From: a virus
Length of the DNA stretch: 38,286 nucleotides
Virus record (IMG/VR): IMGVR_UViG_3300031227_004775
Span: 1 to 38,286 of that record
Reading direction: 5' to 3' (one strand)
A program made the translations under genes and the position numbers. The notes beneath the pieces were generated by a model that saw only the letters and a list, made by a program, of their open reading frames with translations, searched no databases and had not been told where the DNA came from. Numbering within the stretch: position 1 is the first letter of the stretch; each line of letters starts with the position of its first letter. Of the stretch, positions 2-33,170 are shown one piece after another.

Positions 2-271
2 GCAGCCGCTAATACATTGGGAGCATATTTAGTCGAATCTGATATCGAATCTGATGATGTCTCTGCGTTGTTTGCCAGTATCCCGAATATTCCAGGTAAG
101 GAGTGCGATGGGACAGCGACCTCAGTTACTTACAAGACATCCAATCATACCATAACCGGATACATTCTACTCTCAATTCTGAGTGCGGGTGTTCAGGTTG
201 TTGGGAGGGCCGCCGCCGCCGCCGATGCTTCGAGTGCAGATGCTGATATACACATCGAGAGTATTCTCTGA
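2..271 (+). CDS. Capsid-associated structural protein, copy 1 (5' truncated)
   Basis: Only the last 89 residues are inside the window; the frame is open to the left edge, so the TTG at 17 is internal and not a start. The sequence is a clear paralogue of the C-terminal third of the next gene: both contain a CDGT core, then TSNHT, GYILLSILS, GVQVVGRA and end in DIHIESIL. It lies two genes before the major capsid protein, which suggests a head decoration or capsid-associated virion protein. That role is inferred from position; the family itself I do not recognise. Confidence 0.75.
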   Translation, partial: AAANTLGAYLVESDIESDDVSALFASIPNIPGKECDGTATSVTYKTSNHTITGYILLSILSAGVQVVGRAAAAADASSADADIHIESIL

Positions 272-1211: not shown

Positions 1212-2087
1212 ATGACTACAAGTTACGCAAAAGCGGCTAGGTACTTCGACAAGGAAATGGTCGAACCACTCAGGCAACAGCTCATAGGGAGAAAATTATT
1301 CCCTAAGGTCGTTAATCTAAAGCCTGGTGAGTTTAACGTCGATTATGATACCATAACCGATATGAGCGCGGCACAGATTACGAGGACTTATCCGGATGAT
1401 AATGTTTTCAGAGACATGATTAAGGTGGAAAAGACCAATTTGAGACTATGTGTTCTTTCCAAGGGATACGAGGTTCCAAGAGAAGATTTTGAAGCCTTCA
1501 AAACCAAGGGGAAGGATTTGGATGGTTCGGCCATGCTTTCGGCGGCCCATAGGGTTGGGCAGTTGGAGGATGATCTACTCATCCAGGGTTGGGTTCCAGA
1601 TGGTAGCAATTATACTGTTAGCGGTCTATATCAGAGTGCTGGCAATGATGCTACTGGCTCAGTAACATCGTCTTTCGGTGGGATGTCCACAGGAGTGGCA
1701 GCTGCATTTGCACTTCTAATGGCGGACGATGTTTCGGGTATTAACTATAATCTTGTCCTACACGCTACGCAATATTCCGAGCTAATGGCATCGAGAAGTA
1801 CCAATGGAGTACGGGAATGGCCCGACATAGTGGATATGATTAACCCAACAACTGGTACTAAGGGAGAAATCTATCAGTCCTCGGATATCACGGTGGACAC
1901 TGCGTTGATGAGCCCTGCAGATTCAGCGGGTAAATATATCGACCTAGTGAGGGCACAGGACTTCAAGAACATCATAGGTGAGGATTCCAAGATACCGGAT
2001 ATCTCGCCAATCTATGGTACGACAGTCTTGGTAGAAGTTCCACGGATCAAGCAAGCCAACGCCATTTGCAAGATAAATACCCTGTGA
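1212..2087 (+). CDS. HK97-fold major capsid protein (encapsulin-like)
   Basis: A 291-residue protein that would build the icosahedral shell. The N-terminal segment has YFDKEMVEPLRQQLIGRKLF followed by a GEFNVDYDTI stretch, the pattern of encapsulin/linocin-type HK97-fold shell proteins, in which an N-terminal helix ends in LxGRK before a beta arm. A central Gly/Ala-rich region and a C-terminal strand (TTVLVEVPR) fit the A-domain. It has no N-terminal delta-domain or protease site, so a separate scaffold may be used. The start is ATG 1212 with GGGGGGAATAAG upstream. Its place between decoration-type and connector genes supports the call. The fold is inferred by eye. Confidence 0.75.
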   Translation: MTTSYAKAARYFDKEMVEPLRQQLIGRKLFPKVVNLKPGEFNVDYDTITDMSAAQITRTYPDDNVFRDMIKVEKTNLRLCVLSKGYEVPREDFEAFKTKGKDLDGSAMLSAAHRVGQLEDDLLIQGWVPDGSNYTVSGLYQSAGNDATGSVTSSFGGMSTGVAAAFALLMADDVSGINYNLVLHATQYSELMASRSTNGVREWPDIVDMINPTTGTKGEIYQSSDITVDTALMSPADSAGKYIDLVRAQDFKNIIGEDSKIPDISPIYGTTVLVEVPRIKQANAICKINTL

Positions 2088-2495: not shown

Positions 2496-4226
2496 ATGTT
2501 ACCCACCCCTCCGCAGGGTACTAAGTGGGACGGTGGAAGAAGAACCGATGCCGCCGCCGCCGGTGTACCAACAACGGCGGATACAGCTTATGCTTATCTT
2601 AAGCAGACCGTCAATCTGTTGTTATCTTTAGAAGGCGATGTTCAAGCTCATCCCGATGCAACTAGACAGGTCGAACTACTCAACATATTCGAACCTGGAG
2701 TTACATTCTACGATCCATCTGGTGGATTGATAGGAACGGCTGATATAACCCCTGGAACGCATGATGTATATAGAATAAGGATCGCGACTGAGACAAAGAT
2801 AGTCGATGATGTGGCTTCCTCTGAGGCTGCTGGAAGAGTATATGTCGCTTATACTGTGGACAATACCAATTGGGCCATAGGCGACCTAGGATATGCTCTT
2901 TTTAAAGGTATTGTCATCTGGACCGGTACAAGCTCAGAAACGAGTATGCCCGATATACCTGTATTCTTTAGAGTTGTAAGAACAGGAAGTATTCAGACCA
3001 CGGTTGAAACGATAGACGATAATACAGAACATCTATATGCGCTCATTGATGGTGGAAGCAACGCTTATCCGGATTCAGTAGTACAGGAGAGTGTCATAGC
3101 ATATTTGATGAGTAAATCATCCGATCCTATAAATACATCTTATGATAATACTACTGACTCTCTAGAGGCCATCTCTGATCTGGTAACCGATACTCACGCC
3201 GTGAGAGGAACAGTTTCAGATGTAGGTGCTGCCGCTACTGATTTCGATACTGATTTATCCGAAGGCACTGACAACCACTATAATGGAATGCTCTTAATGT
3301 TCCTTGACGGTGTTTGCGCTGGTCAGGCACATCTGATCGATGATTATGCCACGGCCAACGGGAACTGTACCTTTGTGACATCGGATCAATGGACGGAAGC
3401 ACCTGGAAATGGGGATGCGTTTATCATAATCCCTGATTCCGGAGCGTACTTGAAGAAGATATTTACGATAGCAGACACGGTAAATACGAGTGTAGGAACC
3501 AATGGCGATGCCGCAGGAACGACCACCGTATTCGCAAGATTGAAACAGATAGTAGATACATATTTAGGCAATGGAACGATAGGACTAGCTGTAATAGAGG
3601 GCTATGTCGATGATATTGAATCCAGATTAGGAACACCTGCCACAGGTACAGTAGCCGGAGATGTCGAATCTATCGAGACGAAAGTAGGAACCAACGCAGA
3701 TGGTGTTGGAACCACGACGGTCTTTGCTAGATTGGCTCAGATAGTTACCACATATCTATCAGACGGAACGATAGGATTGGCGGCCATAGAAGCATTGGTG
3801 GATGATCTTGAATCAAGATTAACGGCACAGAGAGCATTAAATCTCGACTGGCTGGATATAAGCGTATTCAGCCAGGAAACCGCAGGGGCGGCGGACTCCA
3901 ATGGCACGTCATGGGTTGACCTGCTCGATAAATCCACCATAACCAAACCTACTAAAATCTGTGGGTTCAAGCTGACCAAGGCCGGAACATGGGCAGGAGA
4001 TTGCAGGGTTAGGATAACCGATGGTTCGGCTACCAAGATATTCCCCTTTGCGGATTATTACACCGAAGGAACCGAATTCAATTCGGGAGTTCAGCACACA
4101 TTGAATTTCACAGTGAATGTTCCGGTAGCTGATGGTTATAAGATACAATTTTGTTCGTCAAACGGCGGGGATGGCGTAGGCGAAACGCTTGCATTGACGA
4201 ATCTTGCCATAATCGAGGTGGGCTGA
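2496..4226 (+). CDS. Large virion surface/fibre-like protein with internal repeat
   Basis: A 576-residue protein. Residues 1-200 start with a Pro-rich PTPPQGTKWDGG segment and a beta-rich domain. Residues about 333-378 and 397-442 are two copies of a 46-residue unit (VGTN...TTVFARLxQIV.TYL..GTIGLA.IE..VDD.ESRL) with helical, coiled-coil-like character. The C-terminal 120 residues form a beta domain with Trp and Asp/Gly turns, typical of receptor-facing or decoration modules. Repeats and composition suggest a fibre or head-surface appendage; the assignment rests on context and architecture. The start is ATG 2496 after GGCGGAG. Confidence 0.65.
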   Translation: MLPTPPQGTKWDGGRRTDAAAAGVPTTADTAYAYLKQTVNLLLSLEGDVQAHPDATRQVELLNIFEPGVTFYDPSGGLIGTADITPGTHDVYRIRIATETKIVDDVASSEAAGRVYVAYTVDNTNWAIGDLGYALFKGIVIWTGTSSETSMPDIPVFFRVVRTGSIQTTVETIDDNTEHLYALIDGGSNAYPDSVVQESVIAYLMSKSSDPINTSYDNTTDSLEAISDLVTDTHAVRGTVSDVGAAATDFDTDLSEGTDNHYNGMLLMFLDGVCAGQAHLIDDYATANGNCTFVTSDQWTEAPGNGDAFIIIPDSGAYLKKIFTIADTVNTSVGTNGDAAGTTTVFARLKQIVDTYLGNGTIGLAVIEGYVDDIESRLGTPATGTVAGDVESIETKVGTNADGVGTTTVFARLAQIVTTYLSDGTIGLAAIEALVDDLESRLTAQRALNLDWLDISVFSQETAGAADSNGTSWVDLLDKSTITKPTKICGFKLTKAGTWAGDCRVRITDGSATKIFPFADYYTEGTEFNSGVQHTLNFTVNVPVADGYKIQFCSSNGGDGVGETLALTNLAIIEVG

Positions 4227-4227
4227 A

Positions 4228-4479
4228 ATGCCCGATTCGGGCCTCAAGCATGGGGACTTCAAAGAGGGAATTGCTACTATAACCGCAGGAAATACCTTTG
4301 TCGATGTCACCCATGGTTTCTATACTACGCCTCGTTCCGTGATGGTTGAGCCAGATAGTGCGGAAGGGGTGGATCACTATGTCCCGGATGCAAACATAGG
4401 AGCTGTCACTTTCCGAATATCTATCTCGGCTGCCCAGTCGGTGAATGTTCTATTCAAATGGATTGCGGCGGTGAGTTGA
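4228..4479 (+). CDS. Small beta-sandwich-like virion protein
   Basis: An 83-residue protein starting one base after the previous stop, with GGTGGG as ribosome site. The pattern of aromatic and hydrophobic strands (GNTFVDVTHGFYTTP, then VTFRISISAAQSVNVLFKW) resembles small single-domain modules that phages place on fibres, such as H-type lectin-like domains. I cannot confirm that family. Its position between a fibre-like gene and a further surface gene supports a structural role. Confidence 0.6.
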   Translation: MPDSGLKHGDFKEGIATITAGNTFVDVTHGFYTTPRSVMVEPDSAEGVDHYVPDANIGAVTFRISISAAQSVNVLFKWIAAVS

Positions 4480-4480
4480 G

Positions 4481-5080
4481 ATGGCCATTCATGTTCACGC
4501 AGGCTTCAAGGCCGGTGGCGAAGTAGACATGAATTCAGAGAAGCTGAAGAATCATTCCTTCCTGGACATTTTCATGGATGTATTGGCCGAGGATACGAAT
4601 CATGTCGTTGCTGCTGAAGATCTAACTGCGGGCACGCCGATTGACTGTGTGATTGCCGCTCAACCGGATGTCCCCAGGAACGTAACGATAACGATAACCG
4701 ATGCGGATACGTCGATAACTGCGTTCTCAATTACCGTGGCAGGAGTGGATGCGAAGAATGTTGCGATAACCGAGAACTTCGTGTTCGGTGGGGGACTCGT
4801 TCAGACGGGCGACAAGGCATTTGCCGTCATCTCTTCGGTAACGGTTGATTCGATTACGGGAGACGATGCTGGTGACGTGCTCGACGCAGGACTTGGCAGT
4901 AAATGTGGTTTAAAGAATCCACTTACTGCTGCTGGTGACGTGTACAAGGTCAAGGACAACAACGCACACATGGATAGTGGTGATTACACAGTCAACACTA
5001 CGAATGACACAGTTGACCTTTCGACGGGCGGGGCCATCGGAGCAGGCGACGATTATGAGGTCTGGTATATCTGTTCATGA
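4481..5080 (+). CDS. Virion surface protein; stand-alone copy of a shared C-terminal module
   Basis: A 199-residue protein. It begins HVHAGFK, continues with LKNHSFLDIFMDVLAED, then a PDVPRNVTITITD strand region, then CGLKNPL, and ends in GAGDDYEVWY. The same order of motifs (HVHAAMK, DLLRDVLA, PDTPRNISL, VGLKNPI, GGGDDYTIWY) forms the C-terminus of the 987-residue protein downstream. The module is therefore used twice in this operon. It is probably a beta-structured attachment or decoration domain. The start is ATG 4481 after a GGTGA site. Confidence 0.7.
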   Translation: MAIHVHAGFKAGGEVDMNSEKLKNHSFLDIFMDVLAEDTNHVVAAEDLTAGTPIDCVIAAQPDVPRNVTITITDADTSITAFSITVAGVDAKNVAITENFVFGGGLVQTGDKAFAVISSVTVDSITGDDAGDVLDAGLGSKCGLKNPLTAAGDVYKVKDNNAHMDSGDYTVNTTNDTVDLSTGGAIGAGDDYEVWYICS

Positions 5081-5090
5081 GGTGAGCTAG

Positions 5091-5462
5091 ATGAAGATGG
5101 AAGAACAGGACAAGATGGAAGCGGAGATGCTAGAGCTGCAGGACAAGCTCGTAGCGTTGAGAGAGCAGTTCGAGGCGGACATTGCACCGAAGAAGGAAGC
5201 GATGGACACGGATTTGGCTATCCTGAGAGTGAAATTCGAGGACGATGCCGAGCTGCTGAAGTCGCAGTATGGGGTGCATGCGGACAAGGCGATAACGGAT
5301 GTTGACGAGTCGTGGAAGTACACCGTGATGAGCGAGCAGAGAGTGAGGATTCTGGCTCAGGTCGATGAACTTCTTCAGGAAGTGAAACACTATCTAGCTT
5401 GGGTCATTCCGAGACCGTTCAACTACGAGAAGAAGGCGGATGGGAAGATTGAGGTGAAGTAA
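5091..5462 (+). CDS. Coiled-coil virion or assembly protein
   Basis: A 123-residue protein. Residues 1-85 are nearly all Glu, Lys, Met, Leu and Asp in heptad-like order (EMLELQDKLVALREQFE), indicating a long coiled coil. The C-terminal 25 residues are basic and aromatic (WVIPRPFNYEKKADGKIEVK). ATG 5091 follows GAGGTGA at good spacing. It sits inside the head/surface operon, so a trimerising or chaperone role for the neighbouring large surface protein is possible. Its stop TAA (5460-5462) is directly followed, in the same frame, by the next gene. Confidence 0.7.
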   Translation: MKMEEQDKMEAEMLELQDKLVALREQFEADIAPKKEAMDTDLAILRVKFEDDAELLKSQYGVHADKAITDVDESWKYTVMSEQRVRILAQVDELLQEVKHYLAWVIPRPFNYEKKADGKIEVK

Positions 5463-8426
5463 ACGGCACTAAAGAATTGGTCGGCTGGTGCTGCCGGATT
5501 AGCTTCGGTAGGTGCGAATTGGATTGGTGGAGTCGCACCTGTCGCTGGAGATGATGTTCTCTTTGATAATACCAGTATCAACAACTGCACCTGGGATTTG
5601 GCTATCGCTCTTCTTACTTACAGTCAGAACGTTGGTTATGATGGACTTGTGACTGTTCTCAACGTCGATGTCGGCACGACAGGAAACACGACAATCAGCT
5701 CAGGGACATATAAGCCTGATGTTGGACAATGGTGGACTTGTGGAGGAAATTGGACAAAAGATGGTGGAACAGTTCAGTCTTACGCATATAACTTAGAGAT
5801 GACGGGGGATGGGACCGTCCTCAAGAGTACTGCTAATGCGTTTATCTCAGTGAAAATGTCCGGGAATGTAAGTACGGATTATACTGGAAGCTTAGCATTT
5901 AAAAATCTTGAAGTTGTGGCTGGAAAGACCTTCAGCGCATCGGCTGGTGACGAGATTTATATGAATTGGGGGGTTGGTGGATACACCCTAACAAATAATG
6001 GAACGATAGCAGGAGATGGCTCATTTCGTATCTTATTCGAGAGCGCAGATTATTCTACTGATTTGGGGGTCATCAATTGTCCAGTTGAACTATCTTTATA
6101 TCCCACATCTGGGGCCAGCCATAGTCTAACATTAACAGCAAACGCAGTTCTTGGTTCTACTCTTAATGTCAATTCGGGTAGTGCAACCTACACAATGACC
6201 CTCGACACCGCTGGTTACAACGTATCATGCACTGACTTAACTCTAGGGGACAGAGGGATCGTTAACCAGTCTAGTGGTGGAGTAGTCGCTTGCACTAGTT
6301 ACACACAGTCTGGGACCGACTCGTTGTTTACTCAGGGTGCTGAGGTTACTTGCAATGGTGATTGTGACCAGAGTGATGGGGGTCTGGCGGGGGATAGTGC
6401 GAGTGATTTTATCGTGAGTGGGGACTTCACTCGTACGGGTGGTACTGTATCTAATCTCATTCTCAAGATGACTGGGGATGGAAAAACCATAACTTCTCTA
6501 GGTGCTGATAATTACAAGGGCTTAAAGATTTTTAACAATGTTTCAACCGTTGCGGGAGTCATTCAATTCACAGCGAATCTTGAAGTTGATACCGGGAAAA
6601 TCTTTGCCATTAATGCCACAGGTACAGTTCGGGTCTATTATTACGCTGGGAATACATATCTAAACAATGGTATAATCAATGGTGGTGTTCTTCAGATATA
6701 CCTATACGATGCAAACCAGACGATAACCTTTGGAACTGTTAATGCTAACATACAAATTTATGCTCATTCTGCTGCTACTGCAGACCGAGTCTTAACCCCC
6801 GGAGCAAATACCACTTTGGGTTCAACCCTTACCGTACAATCGCTTCACGCAACGTACACAACGACCCTCGACACCGACGGCTACAACTTATCATGCACAG
6901 GAAAGGTAACATCGGGGGTCAGGGGAATAATCGACTTCGGAGAAGGAGAACATCAATTCGGAGATTCATTTGATTATTCAGCAGGAGCAATCATCGCAGG
7001 CACTTCCTTGCTCATCATGACGGGTGAGGACAAGACGATAACAGGGAACGGCAGCGACAAGCTGTGGGACCTGCTCGTCGCTCACAACGCATACTGCACG
7101 CTAGGTGCTGACCTGACCGTCGAGAACAAGCTGATGCACAACGACCGCTTCTTCATCTCGGACTACATGCCCGCAGGGTCGAGAGTACGTGACGAATCAC
7201 TAGCACTTTCGCTGGACATGGAGACGCTGTCAGCCGGTGACATGAAGGACTTCTCGGCAAACGGGAATGACGGAGCGATAACCGGAACGACCGTTGTTGG
7301 TGGCAGAAGGGGCATGGCGAGACGCTTCAACGGGACGACCGATATCATAGAGATGGGGGGCCCCGTATTAGTACCGGACAATGTCACGATATCCGTGTGG
7401 GTCTATGTGATGGGAGACGGGTCTAGTACGAGGAACGGAATCACTGAGTACATCAACGGCTTCCTTACGAACAAGTTGGAAATAGCGAATGCTGACGACA
7501 AGATTCGTGCCACTTTCCAGTACACTGTTGAAGACCTAGAGTTGGCCTCGAACAACGCAATCACTCGGAATCGGTGGTGTCATGTCGTATTCCGTGTAAG
7601 CGTGAACACGGGGAACATCTTCATAGACAACGTCCTCGACGCAAACACGGACACGAAGACCGGCGTGATGGTTCTCGGGGGCACTCACACGGTCCTCGGA
7701 TGCAGTCAGCCCTGGGCAGGCAACAGGAATTTCAACGGGATTATCGACGAGTTCCAGGTTTGGGCACGTCCTCTCAGCGATGCGGAGATTGAGTATCTGT
7801 ACTTCGACGCACTCGGCGGAATCGACAAAGCAGGCTACGCACTGGAGTATGACGCCAACCAGCATGTACATGCGGCGATGAAGATGGACGACGTAATCGA
7901 CATGGACGTTCATAGTCTCGTCGGAATAGCCGAGCAAGACCTCCTCAGAGATGTCTTGGCCGCCGCCGCCAACGCAGTACACGCCGCAATCGCAGGTACG
8001 GGGGCGAGTCAAGATATCGTGGCAGGAATCATCAACCCCGATACCCCGAGGAACATCTCGCTGACGACAACGAACAACGCCGCTCCGTCTGGCGATGTTG
8101 TGATAGAGGGTGTTGACGCACAGGGAGACGCAACGACAGACACGATAACGATTGTTGCTGGTGGATTGGCGTACGGCGTCGTGGCCTTCTCAACCGTTAC
8201 CAGGATTACTATTCCAGCGGGTGTAGGTGGTGCTGATACTGTGACTGTTGGAACTAGCGACAAGGTGGGGTTGAAGAATCCCATTTACTCTTCATTGGAT
8301 GTATTCAAAATCAAGAAGAACAACGCAGATATGACGATTCCTACGGTAGACCCTGATTATGCGACTGTGGATTTGGACGCGATAGGCGGAGGAGACGATT
8401 ACACCATCTGGTACAGGAGTGTTTGA
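5463..8426 (+). CDS. Large surface protein with LamG-like domain, ACG start
   Basis: A 987-residue protein read from ACG 5463. The frame contains conserved-looking sequence immediately after the upstream TAA (ALKNWSAGAAG, NWIGG, PVAGDDVLFDN), yet the first ATG/GTG/TTG in frame is TTG 5598. GAGGTGA at 5451-5457 is spaced correctly for ACG 5463, so translation very likely begins there. Residues about 45-570 are repetitive beta-strand sequence, probably a beta-helix (TLDTAGYNVSCT and TLDTDGYNLSCT recur). Residues about 577-780 look like a LamG/concanavalin-type jelly roll (DFSANGNDG, RRFNGTTD, ISVWVY, GIIDEFQVWARPLSDAEI). The end repeats the module of the 199-residue protein. Likely a host-binding or surface appendage. 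Confidence 0.75.
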   Translation, partial: TALKNWSAGAAGLASVGANWIGGVAPVAGDDVLFDNTSINNCTWDLAIALLTYSQNVGYDGLVTVLNVDVGTTGNTTISSGTYKPDVGQWWTCGGNWTKDGGTVQSYAYNLEMTGDGTVLKSTANAFISVKMSGNVSTDYTGSLAFKNLEVVAGKTFSASAGDEIYMNWGVGGYTLTNNGTIAGDGSFRILFESADYSTDLGVINCPVELSLYPTSGASHSLTLTANAVLGSTLNVNSGSATYTMTLDTAGYNVSCTDLTLGDRGIVNQSSGGVVACTSYTQSGTDSLFTQGAEVTCNGDCDQSDGGLAGDSASDFIVSGDFTRTGGTVSNLILKMTGDGKTITSLGADNYKGLKIFNNVSTVAGVIQFTANLEVDTGKIFAINATGTVRVYYYAGNTYLNNGIINGGVLQIYLYDANQTITFGTVNANIQIYAHSAATADRVLTPGANTTLGSTLTVQSLHATYTTTLDTDGYNLSCTGKVTSGVRGIIDFGEGEHQFGDSFDYSAGAIIAGTSLLIMTGEDKTITGNGSDKLWDLLVAHNAYCTLGADLTVENKLMHNDRFFISDYMPAGSRVRDESLALSLDMETLSAGDMKDFSANGNDGAITGTTVVGGRRGMARRFNGTTDIIEMGGPVLVPDNVTISVWVYVMGDGSSTRNGITEYINGFLTNKLEIANADDKIRATFQYTVEDLELASNNAITRNRWCHVVFRVSVNTGNIFIDNVLDANTDTKTGVMVLGGTHTVLGCSQPWAGNRNFNGIIDEFQVWARPLSDAEIEYLYFDALGGIDKAGYALEYDANQHVHAAMKMDDVIDMDVHSLVGIAEQDLLRDVLAAAANAVHAAIAGTGASQDIVAGIINPDTPRNISLTTTNNAAPSGDVVIEGVDAQGDATTDTITIVAGGLAYGVVAFSTVTRITIPAGVGGADTVTVGTSDKVGLKNPIYSSLDVFKIKKNNADMTIPTVDPDYATVDLDAIGGGDDYTIWYRSV

Positions 8427-12165: not shown

Positions 12166-12497
12166 ATGGGCCCATAGATTGGTATGATCTGTGGGCCTTC
12201 GGGACATTATCCTTGAACCTCACCGAAGAAGAATTCTGGGGATGCTGCCCTAAAGAATTCAATGCCCTGGTAGAACGTCATAATATATTGGAAGAAAAGG
12301 AAGATAGAAAGTTCGCGATCCTCTGCATGATAAACGCCGAGCCATATAGGGATAAGAAGAAGAAACCCAACCCCTATAAAATCGAAGATTTCATGCCGAA
12401 ATACGAACAGAAAAGAGAGAAAAAAGAGCAAACCATTAAAGAGCAAGTAGAAATGGCCAAGGCCTTGAATAAGATGTTCGGTGGTGAAGTAAAGTGA
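12162..12497 (+). CDS. Tail assembly chaperone, frameshift extension (gpT-like part of gpGT)
   Basis: Read in the -1 frame after the heptamer, joined to 11842-12162 to give a fusion of about 218 residues. The extension reads GPIDWYDLWAFGTLSLNLTE then EEFWGCCPKEFNALVERHN, helical and then Lys-rich. WYDLWAFGT precedes the first possible independent start (TTG 12213), so the segment only makes sense as a frameshift product. The FW...P-x-E-x-x-A-L motif is common in T-part chaperones. It ends overlapping the tape measure GTG start (12494-12497). Confidence 0.8.
   Translation, partial: VNGPIDWYDLWAFGTLSLNLTEEEFWGCCPKEFNALVERHNILEEKEDRKFAILCMINAEPYRDKKKKPNPYKIEDFMPKYEQKREKKEQTIKEQVEMAKALNKMFGGEVK
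12168..12198 (+). promoter_or_regulatory. Frameshift-stimulating hairpin
   Basis: GGCCCA (12169-12174) pairs with TGGGCC (12192-12197). The stem continues inward through 12175-12180 with 12186-12191, giving 12 pairs (two G-T wobbles) and a 5-nt loop at 12181-12185. The outer 12168-12198 G-T pair can add one more. The stem begins 5-6 nt after the slippery heptamer, the standard spacing for -1 frameshift stimulators. Confidence 0.8.
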
Positions 12498-15229
12498 ATC
12501 TAGGGGATGTGGTAGTAAGATTCAAGGCCGACACCGCTGATTTTCAGAGAAGTATTTCTACCGTCAAAACCAATCTAAAATCCATAGGTACATCGATGCA
12601 GACCGTCGGGAAGAAGATGACAATGGGCGTAACTCTTCCATTGCTAGCTCTCGGCGCAGGAATCGGTTATGCCTCGATAAAGGCCGCCGGTTTCGATAAG
12701 AAGATGAGGGAGGTTTTCACACTTCTTCCCGGCATCACTGAAGATGCGATGACCGATATGACCGAAAGCGTAAAGAGACTAGCGCGTGAAATGGGAATAT
12801 CGGCAGAAGAAGTTGCGAGTGCTTTGTATCAGGCGGTATCTGCCGGAGTACCACGGGAAGATGTTTTTGAGTTCATGGAAATTGCATCTAAGGCAGCAAT
12901 AGGCGGAGTTACCGATCTAGAAACGGCAGTCGATGGAATTACTTCTGTTGTCAACGCTTATGGAGCAAGCGTCATCGACGCGACCAGAGCATCCGACATT
13001 CTATTCACTGCTGTGAGATTAGGAAAATGCGTGGTGGGTTCGACCAGAGTCTTGCTCAGCGATGGGAGGTATGAACGTATCGATAACCTTCAAGATGGGG
13101 GAGAAATTATATCTTTTGATGGTCGTGCCTTTGTTCCCATGCACGCGGAATGGGTCGAACAGGGTGTTAAACGAACCGTCAAATTGAAGACCCGGTTGGG
13201 GAAAGAGATTGTCACCACTTGGAATCACCCATATCTAACCGACAATGCTCCGGATATGGATTCGCGGTCCACCCGCGATCCGGTTTGGAAAAAGGTTTCT
13301 GAATTGGAAGTGGGGGATAGAATAGCGATACCTACGTCGTTGCCTTTCTTTGGAGAGAAAGAAGTTCCGGAAGAAGTGGCATCATTATTGGGGCTATGGT
13401 TGGCTGAAGGTGCATCCAGTTCTTCTTCACCCAGAATATCCACAACGAAATATGGAGATGAGGTCAGACAATGGAGTGCTTATTTAGGGTGCGAGACCCA
13501 CAATGTAGAAAAACGGAAGGGATTCTGTCCGTCTTATCTGATAACCACGGGTCGAAACGGGAACCGCGAAAACCCCGTTCAGGAAATGCTAAAGAGATAT
13601 GGCCTTGCTAATACATCGTCTGGTGAAAAACATATTCCCGAAGAGGTATTTACTTGGAACAGGAAAAGCATTTCGATATTGTTGAGATGGCTTTTCAATG
13701 GTGATGGATGGTTGTGCAATCTTCATCGTTGGGGCAAATCCGGGTTTCAATTGGGATTCGTCTCGAAATCAGAACGATTGGTTAGAGACGTATCACATCT
13801 ATTATTGAGATTTGGGATCGTTGGTAAGGTACGTGACAGGTACAACTGTTTTGTGTGGGAGATCAATCGCCATTTCGAAGTTGCTAGATTCGTTCGATTT
13901 ATAGGGATAGACCGCCCCGCTGCCAGTTTGGTTCTCGATCACACACCAGAAAAACAAAGATCAAAGTGGGGAGTGATTGAGTATGATCCTATCGTATCCA
14001 TCAAAGAAGAGGAAGAAGAACGGGTCTATGATTTGATAGTGGAAGAATTGCATAACTTTGTGGCAGAGGACATTATTGCGCACAACACGAATTTTGAGGA
14101 ATTATCAAGATATATATTCCAAGTCACTCCCGTTGCCGCGGCCCTAGGGATCAAGTTCGAGGAAGTGGCCGCGGGTCTATCTGCAATGACCGCCCAGGGT
14201 GTTCCGACACGTGTGGCGGCCACCCAATTCAGACAGTTGTTTATTGAATTATCTAAAGCGGGAGGAGTAGCGGCAACGATTTTCAGCGAACTCACCGGTA
14301 TGACTTTTAAGGCCTTTATTGCCTCTGGAAAATCTGTTGCCGATGCTTTAAAGCTCATGGAAGACCATTCTACATCTCTTAACCTCGGCATCAATGATAT
14401 GTTCAGTTCCGTCGAGGCCGGCAACGCGGCATTGATGCTCTCGGGAACGGGGATGGTTAAATTCACAAGCGATCTGGCGGACATGGCCGATACGGCAGGG
14501 GCGGTCGCCGACGCATTTTCTGTGATGGACGAAGGCCCCGCCCAATCATTCGCAAGATTAAAGACAGAGATAGAATTGATGATGGTGGAAGTGGGAACAG
14601 AGTTCATTCCGGTGATCCAACAGCTCATACCCGTGATCAAAGATGTGATATCTGTCGTAGGTGATCTGGCCAGATGGTTCGGGAATCTGTCGCAACCCAC
14701 TCAGTTAATCATTATTGGAATATTAGGGATCGCGGCGGCATTGGGACCGGTCCTGTGGATAACCGGAGGAATCATAGCGGCACTACCGGCAGTAATGGGG
14801 TTATTCGGTGGTCTGACCGGGAGCGTGTTCGGCCTTTCGGGTGCTTTCGCGGCACTGAATATATCGATGGGTCCGGTCATGTGGTTGCTCATGGCGATCG
14901 CCGGAATAATAATGCTTTTGATGGCGAATTGGGAAGATGTCGTCAAAATGTTCAGTGGGATATCCGAAGCATTGTTTGGTTCATTCGGTGGTATAGTCAC
15001 ACCCAATATAGAGGGTATGGAGACCGGGGGAATCGTACCAACTCCAAGAATCGTTAGTGTGGCCGAGAGAGGGCCCGAAGCTATTATACCATTATCCGAG
15101 TTGGGGGAAACCGTAGGTGCTGGCGGTGGAACGTATTACGATAATCGAGAAATAAACATCTATGACGCTTCAAGGGATGATGTGGAGATACAACTGATGA
15201 GATACAACTGGTCATCGAGGAGGCGTTAG
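12494..15229 (+). CDS. Tape measure protein interrupted by an intein
   Basis: A 911-residue precursor starting at GTG 12494 and overlapping the chaperone stop. Residues 1-178 and 532-911 are the tape measure: an N-terminal coiled coil, then a conserved phage TMP core (ISAEEVASALYQAVSAGV, ASDILFTAVRLGK / TNFEELSRYIFQVTPVAAAL, TAQGVPTRVAATQFRQL). Hydrophobic membrane-like helices follow at about 730-820, then the C-terminal motif TGGIVP...VAERGPEAIIPLSELG seen in many TMPs. Residues 179-531 are an intein, leaving a mature protein of 558 residues, which would imply a fairly short tail. TMP sets tail length and takes part in DNA delivery. Confidence 0.9.
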   Translation: MNLGDVVVRFKADTADFQRSISTVKTNLKSIGTSMQTVGKKMTMGVTLPLLALGAGIGYASIKAAGFDKKMREVFTLLPGITEDAMTDMTESVKRLAREMGISAEEVASALYQAVSAGVPREDVFEFMEIASKAAIGGVTDLETAVDGITSVVNAYGASVIDATRASDILFTAVRLGKCVVGSTRVLLSDGRYERIDNLQDGGEIISFDGRAFVPMHAEWVEQGVKRTVKLKTRLGKEIVTTWNHPYLTDNAPDMDSRSTRDPVWKKVSELEVGDRIAIPTSLPFFGEKEVPEEVASLLGLWLAEGASSSSSPRISTTKYGDEVRQWSAYLGCETHNVEKRKGFCPSYLITTGRNGNRENPVQEMLKRYGLANTSSGEKHIPEEVFTWNRKSISILLRWLFNGDGWLCNLHRWGKSGFQLGFVSKSERLVRDVSHLLLRFGIVGKVRDRYNCFVWEINRHFEVARFVRFIGIDRPAASLVLDHTPEKQRSKWGVIEYDPIVSIKEEEEERVYDLIVEELHNFVAEDIIAHNTNFEELSRYIFQVTPVAAALGIKFEEVAAGLSAMTAQGVPTRVAATQFRQLFIELSKAGGVAATIFSELTGMTFKAFIASGKSVADALKLMEDHSTSLNLGINDMFSSVEAGNAALMLSGTGMVKFTSDLADMADTAGAVADAFSVMDEGPAQSFARLKTEIELMMVEVGTEFIPVIQQLIPVIKDVISVVGDLARWFGNLSQPTQLIIIGILGIAAALGPVLWITGGIIAALPAVMGLFGGLTGSVFGLSGAFAALNISMGPVMWLLMAIAGIIMLLMANWEDVVKMFSGISEALFGSFGGIVTPNIEGMETGGIVPTPRIVSVAERGPEAIIPLSELGETVGAGGGTYYDNREINIYDASRDDVEIQLMRYNWSSRRR
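13028..14086 (+). mobile_element. LAGLIDADG-type intein inside the tape measure gene
   Basis: A 353-residue in-frame insert, Cys179 to Asn531 of the precursor. Splicing features: first residue Cys in CVVGSTRVLLSDGRYERIDN (block A), TTWNHPYL with Thr and His245 (block B), RVYDLIVEELHNF (block F), terminal His530-Asn531 (block G) and Thr532 as the +1 nucleophile. Two endonuclease motifs lie between: LLGLWLAEG (Glu305) and LLRWLFNGDGW (Asp404). Both acidic residues are present, so the homing enzyme may be active. Removal rejoins ...AVRLGK-TNFEEL..., an uninterrupted TMP motif. Confidence 0.92.
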
Positions 15230-20056: not shown

Positions 20057-20126
20057 GTGCCCATAGTACAATGGTAGTACGCCCCAAAAGGCCGGGGAGA
20101 AGAAGGTTCAATTCCTTCTGGGTGCA
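20057..20126 (+). tRNA. tRNA-like sequence with abnormal anticodon arm
   Basis: Seventy nt fold as a tRNA. The acceptor GTGCCCA pairs with TGGGTGC (two wobbles). The D-arm is GTAC-AATGGTA-GTAC, with an A-box match TAGTACAATGG. The T-arm is GAAGG-TTCAATT-CCTTC, with a perfect B-box GGTTCAATTCC. The discriminator is A and CCA is not encoded. The outline resembles tRNA-Gly. The anticodon arm is wrong: CCCC/GGGG gives only 4 pairs around an 8-nt loop AAAAGGCC with no U33. It may be a decayed tRNA, an attachment-site remnant or a tRNA mimic. An amino acid identity cannot be given. Confidence 0.55.
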
Positions 20127-32018: not shown

Positions 32019-33170
32019 ATGATTAAACCAATAATCCTCTTAATAATTTTTATTCTTCTATTTTCAGCGTTCACGCTCACTGCGAGCGAAGACGATCAAG
32101 AGACTTATGGAACTGGCCTGATAATTTATGATGAGACATACCCCGAAAACAGTATTGCACCAATACAAAATATCCGCAATCTATCATTTCAAAATTCAAT
32201 AGACCTATCTCAGACTCCCTATTTCCCACAGGTGAGAAGCCAGAGCTATTCTTCTTCCTGTGTATCATGGGCCACGACTTACTATGCTTACGGGTATCTT
32301 CAGAAAGAAGAGATGAGTCCAAGCTTCACTTACAACATGGCGAATGGCGGATCTGATACGGGCTCTAGTTTCTCGACGACACTGAAAGTTTTAGAAGATT
32401 GGGGTTCCTGTTCATATTCCCTGATGCCTTTCGATCCTGCCGATTATGTTCATTGGGGCGACGAACTAGCCTTCAGGGACACAATTAACCAAATCCCTAT
32501 AAAACCCATTTCCGTGGCCTTCAGCGGACAACAGGTCATAGATGATATAAAGTACCTCTTATCTGATGAGACGCTCGTTTGCATATCCTTTGATGCCTCT
32601 GCGTACACAGAGGGCTTTAGTGATGGAAACTACATTATATCCTCAGAAGAATACGACACCAACACCGTCAACCACGCGCAGACGATAGTGGGATACGACG
32701 ACACCATAACAGATGACGGGGACATTGGTGCTTTTAGGGTTGTTAACTCATGGGGTTCGAGCTGGGGGGACGCGGGATTCTATTGGCTGACATACGACGC
32801 ATTTAATGAGATAATCCTAAAGGTCTATCATTACCTGATTCCGCAGACTAATTACGATACTCAAACCTACCTAGAGATACGCTTTTCAGTAACACCCTCA
32901 AGAGAACGATTCGAAATCAATGGAGATATCAAATGGTATGCAATAGATACCGATCATCAGCTCCCTAATTACCTCTGCATAAGGACGGGCGATCACGTGA
33001 CGTTGAGCATAGGGGAGACTGAGATAATCGGTATGCTGTCATCATGCGTAATCCACAAGAACGGCCTACGAAGTGGTGAGGCTGATAACCTACCTATCCA
33101 AACGCCTTTCACGGTTGGCAATGAATTTAACTTTAGTGGTATCGAAATGCAAGGATGTGTGGTTGGATGA
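32019..33170 (+). CDS. Exported papain-like (C1 family) cysteine protease
   Basis: A 383-residue protein at ATG 32019 after GGGGGATCGAGG. Residues 1-23 are a signal peptide or anchor (IILLIIFILLFSAFTLTA). The catalytic set is visible: Gln75 in VRSQSYSSSC, Cys81 in CVSWATTYYAYG, His219 in NHAQTIVGYDD and Asn243 in VVNSWGSSWGDAGFYW. A C-terminal domain of about 115 residues follows. No long propeptide is seen. A virus-encoded secreted C1 protease could open the host surface layer at exit or entry, or be a moron gene that alters the host surface. Confidence 0.85.
   Translation: MIKPIILLIIFILLFSAFTLTASEDDQETYGTGLIIYDETYPENSIAPIQNIRNLSFQNSIDLSQTPYFPQVRSQSYSSSCVSWATTYYAYGYLQKEEMSPSFTYNMANGGSDTGSSFSTTLKVLEDWGSCSYSLMPFDPADYVHWGDELAFRDTINQIPIKPISVAFSGQQVIDDIKYLLSDETLVCISFDASAYTEGFSDGNYIISSEEYDTNTVNHAQTIVGYDDTITDDGDIGAFRVVNSWGSSWGDAGFYWLTYDAFNEIILKVYHYLIPQTNYDTQTYLEIRFSVTPSRERFEINGDIKWYAIDTDHQLPNYLCIRTGDHVTLSIGETEIIGMLSSCVIHKNGLRSGEADNLPIQTPFTVGNEFNFSGIEMQGCVVG

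What the first reader, a model, noticed from the sequence alone, without database searches (positions are those of the whole stretch)
13028..14086. Intein in the tape measure protein at a conserved GK|T site
All splicing residues (Cys1, TxxH, His-Asn, +1 Thr) and both LAGLIDADG motifs are present. Inteins are usually in replication enzymes or terminases; one in a tail tape measure protein is unusual. Splicing must finish before tail assembly, which could make it a timing switch.
Basis: partly seen in the sequence, partly recalled or inferred. Interest (0 to 1): 0.65.

Follow-up and report, generated by a model that had tools for sequence, protein, structure and literature searches.

The report
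Homing intein in phage tail ruler
A self-splicing mobile protein element (an intein with a DNA-cutting homing enzyme) sits in the gene for the tail-length ruler of an uncultivated phage, and the same element occupies the same spot in very different phages, so it spreads by itself through tail genes and needs no role as a timing switch.

Summary
ORF 12494-15229 encodes a 911-aa tail tape measure protein (TMP). Residues 179-531 (nt 13028-14086, 353 aa) form a canonical class-1 intein with a LAGLIDADG homing endonuclease, leaving a 558-aa TMP after splicing. Profile searches and an AlphaFold model (pLDDT 89, closest to TliVMA and PI-SceI) agree. Splicing and nuclease residues are invariant in 11 full-length alleles. 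The insertion point GK|T is kept in 77 of 81 intein-free TMPs. One sister phage pair from the same metagenome differs by exactly the intein (84% identical exteins, alignment broken only at the insert). Between TMP classes exteins share about 28% identity but inteins about 55%; within classes both are 54-61%. This indicates lateral spread at an orthologous site. dN/dS of 0.06 in one allele pair shows purifying selection. A MAG contig carries a splicing-dead, nuclease-intact freestanding derivative beside an intein-free TMP. No TMP intein turned up by homology in 50,697 GenBank phages or in the held literature, where phage inteins sit in nucleic-acid proteins and a few portal or head proteins. 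The timing-switch idea has no support. Verdict: a new allele family of a known kind of element in an unusual host protein.

The parts
12494..15229 (+). tail tape measure protein gene with intein (911-aa precursor, GTG start)
12494..13027 (+). N-extein (178 aa), ends ...FTAVRLGK
13028..14086 (+). intein with LAGLIDADG homing endonuclease (353 aa)
13028..13030 (+). Cys1, N-terminal splicing nucleophile
   Evidence: TIGR01445 starts here
13214..13231 (+). block B TTWNHP (T-x-x-H)
13385..13411 (+). first LAGLIDADG motif LLGLWLAEG (acidic Glu127)
13628..13639 (+). block D KHIP (Lys201)
13679..13708 (+). second LAGLIDADG motif LLRWLFNGDG (acidic Asp226)
14024..14086 (+). blocks F and G: VYDLIVEELHNFVAEDIIAHN
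   Evidence: TIGR01443 match
14087..15229 (+). C-extein (380 aa), starts with +1 Thr (TNFEEL)

Best explanation
This is a class-1 (Cys1/Thr+1) LAGLIDADG homing intein, a selfish mobile element. It is translated inside the TMP and removes itself post-translationally by the standard four steps: Cys1 acyl shift, transesterification to Thr+1, Asn353 cyclisation and a final acyl shift. This leaves an intact 558-aa ruler. The freed endonuclease most likely cuts intein-less TMP alleles at the conserved RLGK|T codons during co-infection, and repair copies the intein in. It persists because the site lies in a conserved part of an essential virion gene, where imprecise loss would break the gene. Shown here: anatomy, conservation, an exact empty site, identity pattern of lateral spread, and purifying selection. 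Inferred: splicing activity, DNA cutting and homing.
For: Profiles and exact boundaries. AlphaFold model pLDDT 89, pTM 0.89, with TliVMA, PI-PfuI and PI-SceI inteins as best PDB folds (E down to 3e-22). Catalytic residues invariant in 11 alleles. GK|T kept in 77 of 81 intein-free TMPs. L005 versus L085, same metagenome: blastn colinear at 78% and 70% nt on the two sides, broken only at the 1026-nt intein. Across TMP classes extein mean 28%, intein 55% (31 pairs); within classes 54% and 61% (24 pairs). TMP inteins with the L027 derivative form one clade at 100/100 support apart from the cellular inteins tested. dN/dS 0.059 in the intein of L002/L003, equal to the exteins. Intein GC tracks that of its own flanks, r about 0.96.
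Against: No splicing or cleavage experiment exists. The intein tree is weakly resolved, and its broad split agrees with one extein class (77/97 support), so the number and direction of transfers are not fixed. No near-identical empty allele of the window phage itself was found; the nearest intein-free TMP among those fetched is 57% identical.
Confidence: 0.91

Rival explanations
1. Regulatory intein: splicing is conditional and times tail assembly, so the phage benefits from it.
For: The insert lies in the conserved N-terminal helical domain of the TMP, between two helices in the model, so splicing probably has to come first. Conditional inteins are known elsewhere (cited in PMC7156551).
Against: 81 intein-free relatives exist, 77 with the same GK|T site. 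Related phages in one sample differ by presence or absence at this site. The nuclease residues are intact in every allele, and mobility suffices as explanation.
Confidence: 0.05
2. Decayed intein: splicing is lost and the TMP is non-functional or cleaved into parts.
For: A splicing-dead descendant exists in L027, so decay does occur in this family.
Against: In the window every splicing residue is kept, and the one alignable close allele pair shows strong purifying selection, dN/dS 0.059.
Confidence: 0.03
3. The interruption is an RNA intron, as in phage ICP1's TMP.
For: ICP1's TMP transcript carries three introns with HNH nucleases (PMC10448857).
Against: The insert is fully in frame, encodes a Hint fold, and no intron family matches in Rfam.
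Confidence: 0.01

Closest known systems
Mycobacteriophage TerL1-a intein (classic P-loop insertion, PMC5050341)
   Same: Phage intein inserted between Lys and Thr of a GK|T motif in an essential late gene.
   Different: TerL is an ATPase and the site is its Walker A motif; the TMP is not an ATPase, and its GK|T lies in a loop between helices. Relationship of the inteins not tested by tree.
Portal-protein inteins of Bixzunavirus mycobacteriophages (Gizmo, ET08)
   Same: Intein in a phage structural protein; about 26% identity to the class-B TMP intein.
   Different: Different gene and site; annotated with an HNH nuclease.
ICP1 tape measure introns with HNH homing endonucleases (PMC10448857)
   Same: The TMP gene is the target of homing mobile elements.
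   Different: Removed at RNA level as introns with HNH nucleases; here removed at protein level, with LAGLIDADG.
Cellular LAGLIDADG inteins of Chloroflexota (DnaE, dCTP deaminase, DnaB)
   Same: Similar Hint plus LAGLIDADG architecture; HMM hits up to 146 bits.
   Different: Replication or nucleotide enzymes; outside the 100/100-supported TMP intein clade.

Membership tests
Class-1 LAGLIDADG intein | In-frame insert with Hint splicing domain at both ends | tested here: met
Class-1 LAGLIDADG intein | Cys or Ser at position 1, block B TxxH, penultimate His, terminal Asn, +1 Cys/Ser/Thr | tested here: met
Class-1 LAGLIDADG intein | Two LAGLIDADG motifs with acidic residues and block D Lys | tested here: met
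   E127, D226, K201 invariant in 11 alleles
Class-1 LAGLIDADG intein | Intein-free alleles with a precise empty site | tested here: met
Class-1 LAGLIDADG intein | Lateral mobility at an orthologous site | tested here: met
   identity decoupling; tree topology itself only weakly informative
Class-1 LAGLIDADG intein | Autocatalytic splicing and site-specific DNA cleavage | not testable with these tools
   needs expression and cleavage assays
Regulatory (conditional) intein | Splicing depends on a physiological cue | not testable with these tools
   no data; intein-free relatives argue against need
Group I intron in TMP (ICP1 type) | Intron RNA structure, frame interrupted | tested here: not met
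   no Rfam intron match; insert in frame
Phage tail tape measure protein (TP901/PhageMin_Tail) | Conserved N-terminal domain, in the tail gene cluster | tested here: met
   downstream of head-tail connector and major tail protein genes

The most novel reading that the evidence does not exclude
Splicing of the TMP intein is conditional in the infected cell and gates the onset of tail assembly, so that a selfish element has been co-opted as a morphogenesis clock.
Probability: 0.05. Interest if true: 0.75.

Novelty: new member of a known kind. Interest (0 to 1): 0.45.

Why it matters
It adds a virion assembly ruler, not an enzyme and not known as a nucleic-acid-processing protein, to the known intein hosts. 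It shows that TMP genes are homing targets for inteins as well as for introns. It also gives a well-populated system for studying homing, because there is one site, several divergent TMP classes, empty and filled alleles in one metagenome, a helix-turn-helix-bearing variant, and a freestanding nuclease-like protein of the same family. For annotators, TMP length and predicted tail length must be read after removing the intein (558, not 911, residues).

Tried and rejected
Timing switch: no support, and homing suffices. RNA intron: no Rfam intron match, insert in frame. Decayed intein: residues intact. Homologous inteins in GenBank phage TMPs: the intein itself matches only terminases, helicases and other non-tail proteins. 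With a class-B relative as query, the intein-type hits I inspected were a terminase, a portal and a helicase-like protein. Origin from Walker-A GK|T inteins: the best GenBank phage match, the KLEB27-3 terminase, sits at GK|T, but the best cellular matches are mostly DnaE-type inteins at K|S, so the origin is unresolved. Intein/extein tree incongruence: weak topological signal (AU p 0.02-0.05 on extein data for groups first seen in the intein tree), so I rely on identity decoupling instead. A search of 298 genomes of the class of the Anaerolinea MAG found no further member of this intein family besides L027: the next best match was 146 bits against its 426. A first regex search for the site failed and was replaced by alignment.

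Full report
Observation. The ORF at 12494-15229 (+) encodes 911 residues. Its ends match tape measure proteins (TIGR01760 6.6e-31; PhageMin_Tail 9.2e-25; PHROG 991 1.3e-66) and residues 179-531 match intein models whose ends fall on the proposed junctions (TIGR01445 179-249, TIGR01443 511-532; Intein_splicing 2.7e-14; LAGLIDADG_3 3.7e-9). The intein is nt 13028-14086, 353 aa, and the joined extein is 558 aa. The gene lies in a tail cluster after head-tail connector and major tail protein genes. The record is a 38,286-base virus contig.

Anatomy. The residues are Cys1, T64-W-N-H67, LLGLWLAEG (E127), K201HIP, LLRWLFNGDG (D226), VYD335, N343F, H352 N353 and +1 Thr. All are identical in the 11 full-length alleles at the same site except N66, which is Thr in L008. 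AlphaFold2 with eight natural alleles gives pLDDT 89.1 and pTM 0.89. Foldseek's best PDB matches are full homing-endonuclease inteins: TliVMA (3e-22), PhoVMA, PI-PfuI and PI-SceI. A model of part of the precursor places the junction between two helices of the conserved N-terminal TMP domain (moderate confidence, pTM 0.62). No intron family was found in Rfam.

Relatives with the intein. IMG/VR scans returned 15 contigs with the family, all in TMPs: GK|T in all but L006, which reads GQ|T. L024 and L025 end inside the intein, so only their N-junction was seen. L003/L004/L009 and L008/L010 are near-copies. By extein identity they fall into at least three TMP classes (my labels): class A (window, L001-L005, L009, L013, L021, L024), class B (L007, L008, L010, L019, L025) and class C (L006). 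The scans seed on short conserved peptides, so diverged members may have been missed.

Empty sites. A search with the joined extein gave 80 intein-free TMPs. With the L027 TMP that makes 81, of which 77 read GK|T at the aligned position. Among 72 distinct sequences K and T are each kept in 70 and G in all, although the 8-residue window around the junction is not the most conserved part of the domain (rank 111 of 313). The best empty/filled pair is L085 and L005, both from metagenome 3300045410. Their exteins are 84% identical, and blastn runs colinearly at 78% and 70% identity on the two sides, breaking only at the 1026-nt intein.

Mobility. Within TMP classes, exteins average 54% and inteins 61% identity (24 pairs). 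Across classes, exteins fall to 28% while inteins stay at 55% (31 pairs). Since the two parts diverge at similar rates within classes, the intein most likely crossed between TMP classes after they diverged. Trees alone are weaker: the intein tree is poorly resolved and keeps class B together at 77/97. All TMP inteins plus the L027 protein form one clade at 100/100 against Chloroflexota inteins. Intein GC tracks that of its own flanks across alleles (0.37-0.65; r about 0.96), which suggests long residence. For L002/L003, dN/dS is 0.059 in the intein and 0.058 and 0.052 in the exteins, so the intein is under purifying selection in that pair.

Freestanding descendant. In an Anaerolinea MAG contig (L027) an ORF at 4310-5413 is a member of the intein clade with Cys1, block-B Thr, penultimate His and terminal Asn all lost, but both LAGLIDADG acids and the block-D Lys kept. 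It begins in a 4-base overlap with an HNH endonuclease gene and lies just upstream of an intein-free TMP whose site reads GK|L instead of GK|T. This looks like an intein that became a freestanding endonuclease beside an altered former target. The reverse direction is not excluded, and the contig was not checked for assembly errors.

Comparison with the known. Tblastn of the intein against 50,697 GenBank phages finds only distant inteins (at most 34% identity over partial matches; 26.6% in the best-scoring hit) in terminases, helicases and similar proteins, none in a TMP. GenBank TMPs match only through the exteins, and the 40 listed have spans consistent with no insert. TMPs carrying unrelated inteins would escape these searches. 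In mycobacteriophages, 13 intein-bearing protein groups were catalogued, all nucleic-acid binding, with portal the nearest to a structural role (PMC5050341). An intein in a minor head protein is reported from cryoconite phages (PMC7468147), and TMP genes are known targets of intron-borne HNH nucleases (PMC10448857). I found no described TMP intein in the held open-access library; UniProt, InBase and subscription papers were not searchable.

Timing switch. Nothing tests it here. Many TMPs do without the intein, the endonuclease residues are intact in every allele, and lateral spread explains the distribution. A folded insert of about 40 kDa in the N-terminal domain could hardly enter a tail tube, so splicing before or during assembly is a reasonable requirement (inference), but that does not make it a regulator. 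At the 0.15 nm per residue implied for phiCbK (PMC3556154), a 558-aa ruler predicts a tail of about 84 nm, against about 137 nm for an unspliced 911-aa protein.

Verdict. The feature is a genuine, probably active, laterally mobile intein allele family in an unusual host protein. It is a new member of a known kind.

Noticed in passing
L027:4310-5413 and 3951-4313: Intein-derived freestanding LAGLIDADG protein (splicing residues lost, nuclease residues kept), overlapping an HNH endonuclease gene by 4 bases and next to an intein-free TMP with GK|L at the site.
   Followed up: partly
L008:6403-7638: 412-aa allele of the TMP intein with an extra insert containing a helix-turn-helix (HTH_3-like) between the nuclease and the C-terminal splicing blocks.
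   Followed up: partly
window 1212-2087: Major capsid protein candidate scores above the Pfam cut-off for Linocin_M18, the encapsulin family (E 5e-15); weaker PHROG major head protein match.
   Followed up: no
window 2-271 and 297-1199: The C-terminal ends of these two neighbouring ORFs are nearly identical (..ADASSAD[AV]DIHIESIL), suggesting a tandem duplication.
   Followed up: no
window 4481-5080 and C-terminus of 5598-8426: Two proteins share a similar C-terminal domain (GLKNP..DVYKVKDNNAHM / GLKNP..DVFKIKKNNADM); the larger also has a Laminin_G_3 (concanavalin-like) domain.
   Followed up: no
window 32019-33170: Papain-family (C1) cysteine protease-like protein, an unusual gene for a phage.
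   Followed up: no
window 20057-20126: tRNA-like call with a four-base anticodon (aagg); low confidence.
   Followed up: no
L113 and L114 (same Anaerolinea MAG): Intein in MutS at the Walker A site GK|S (ITGPNMSGK|CVTG...HN|STYLRQ).
   Followed up: no
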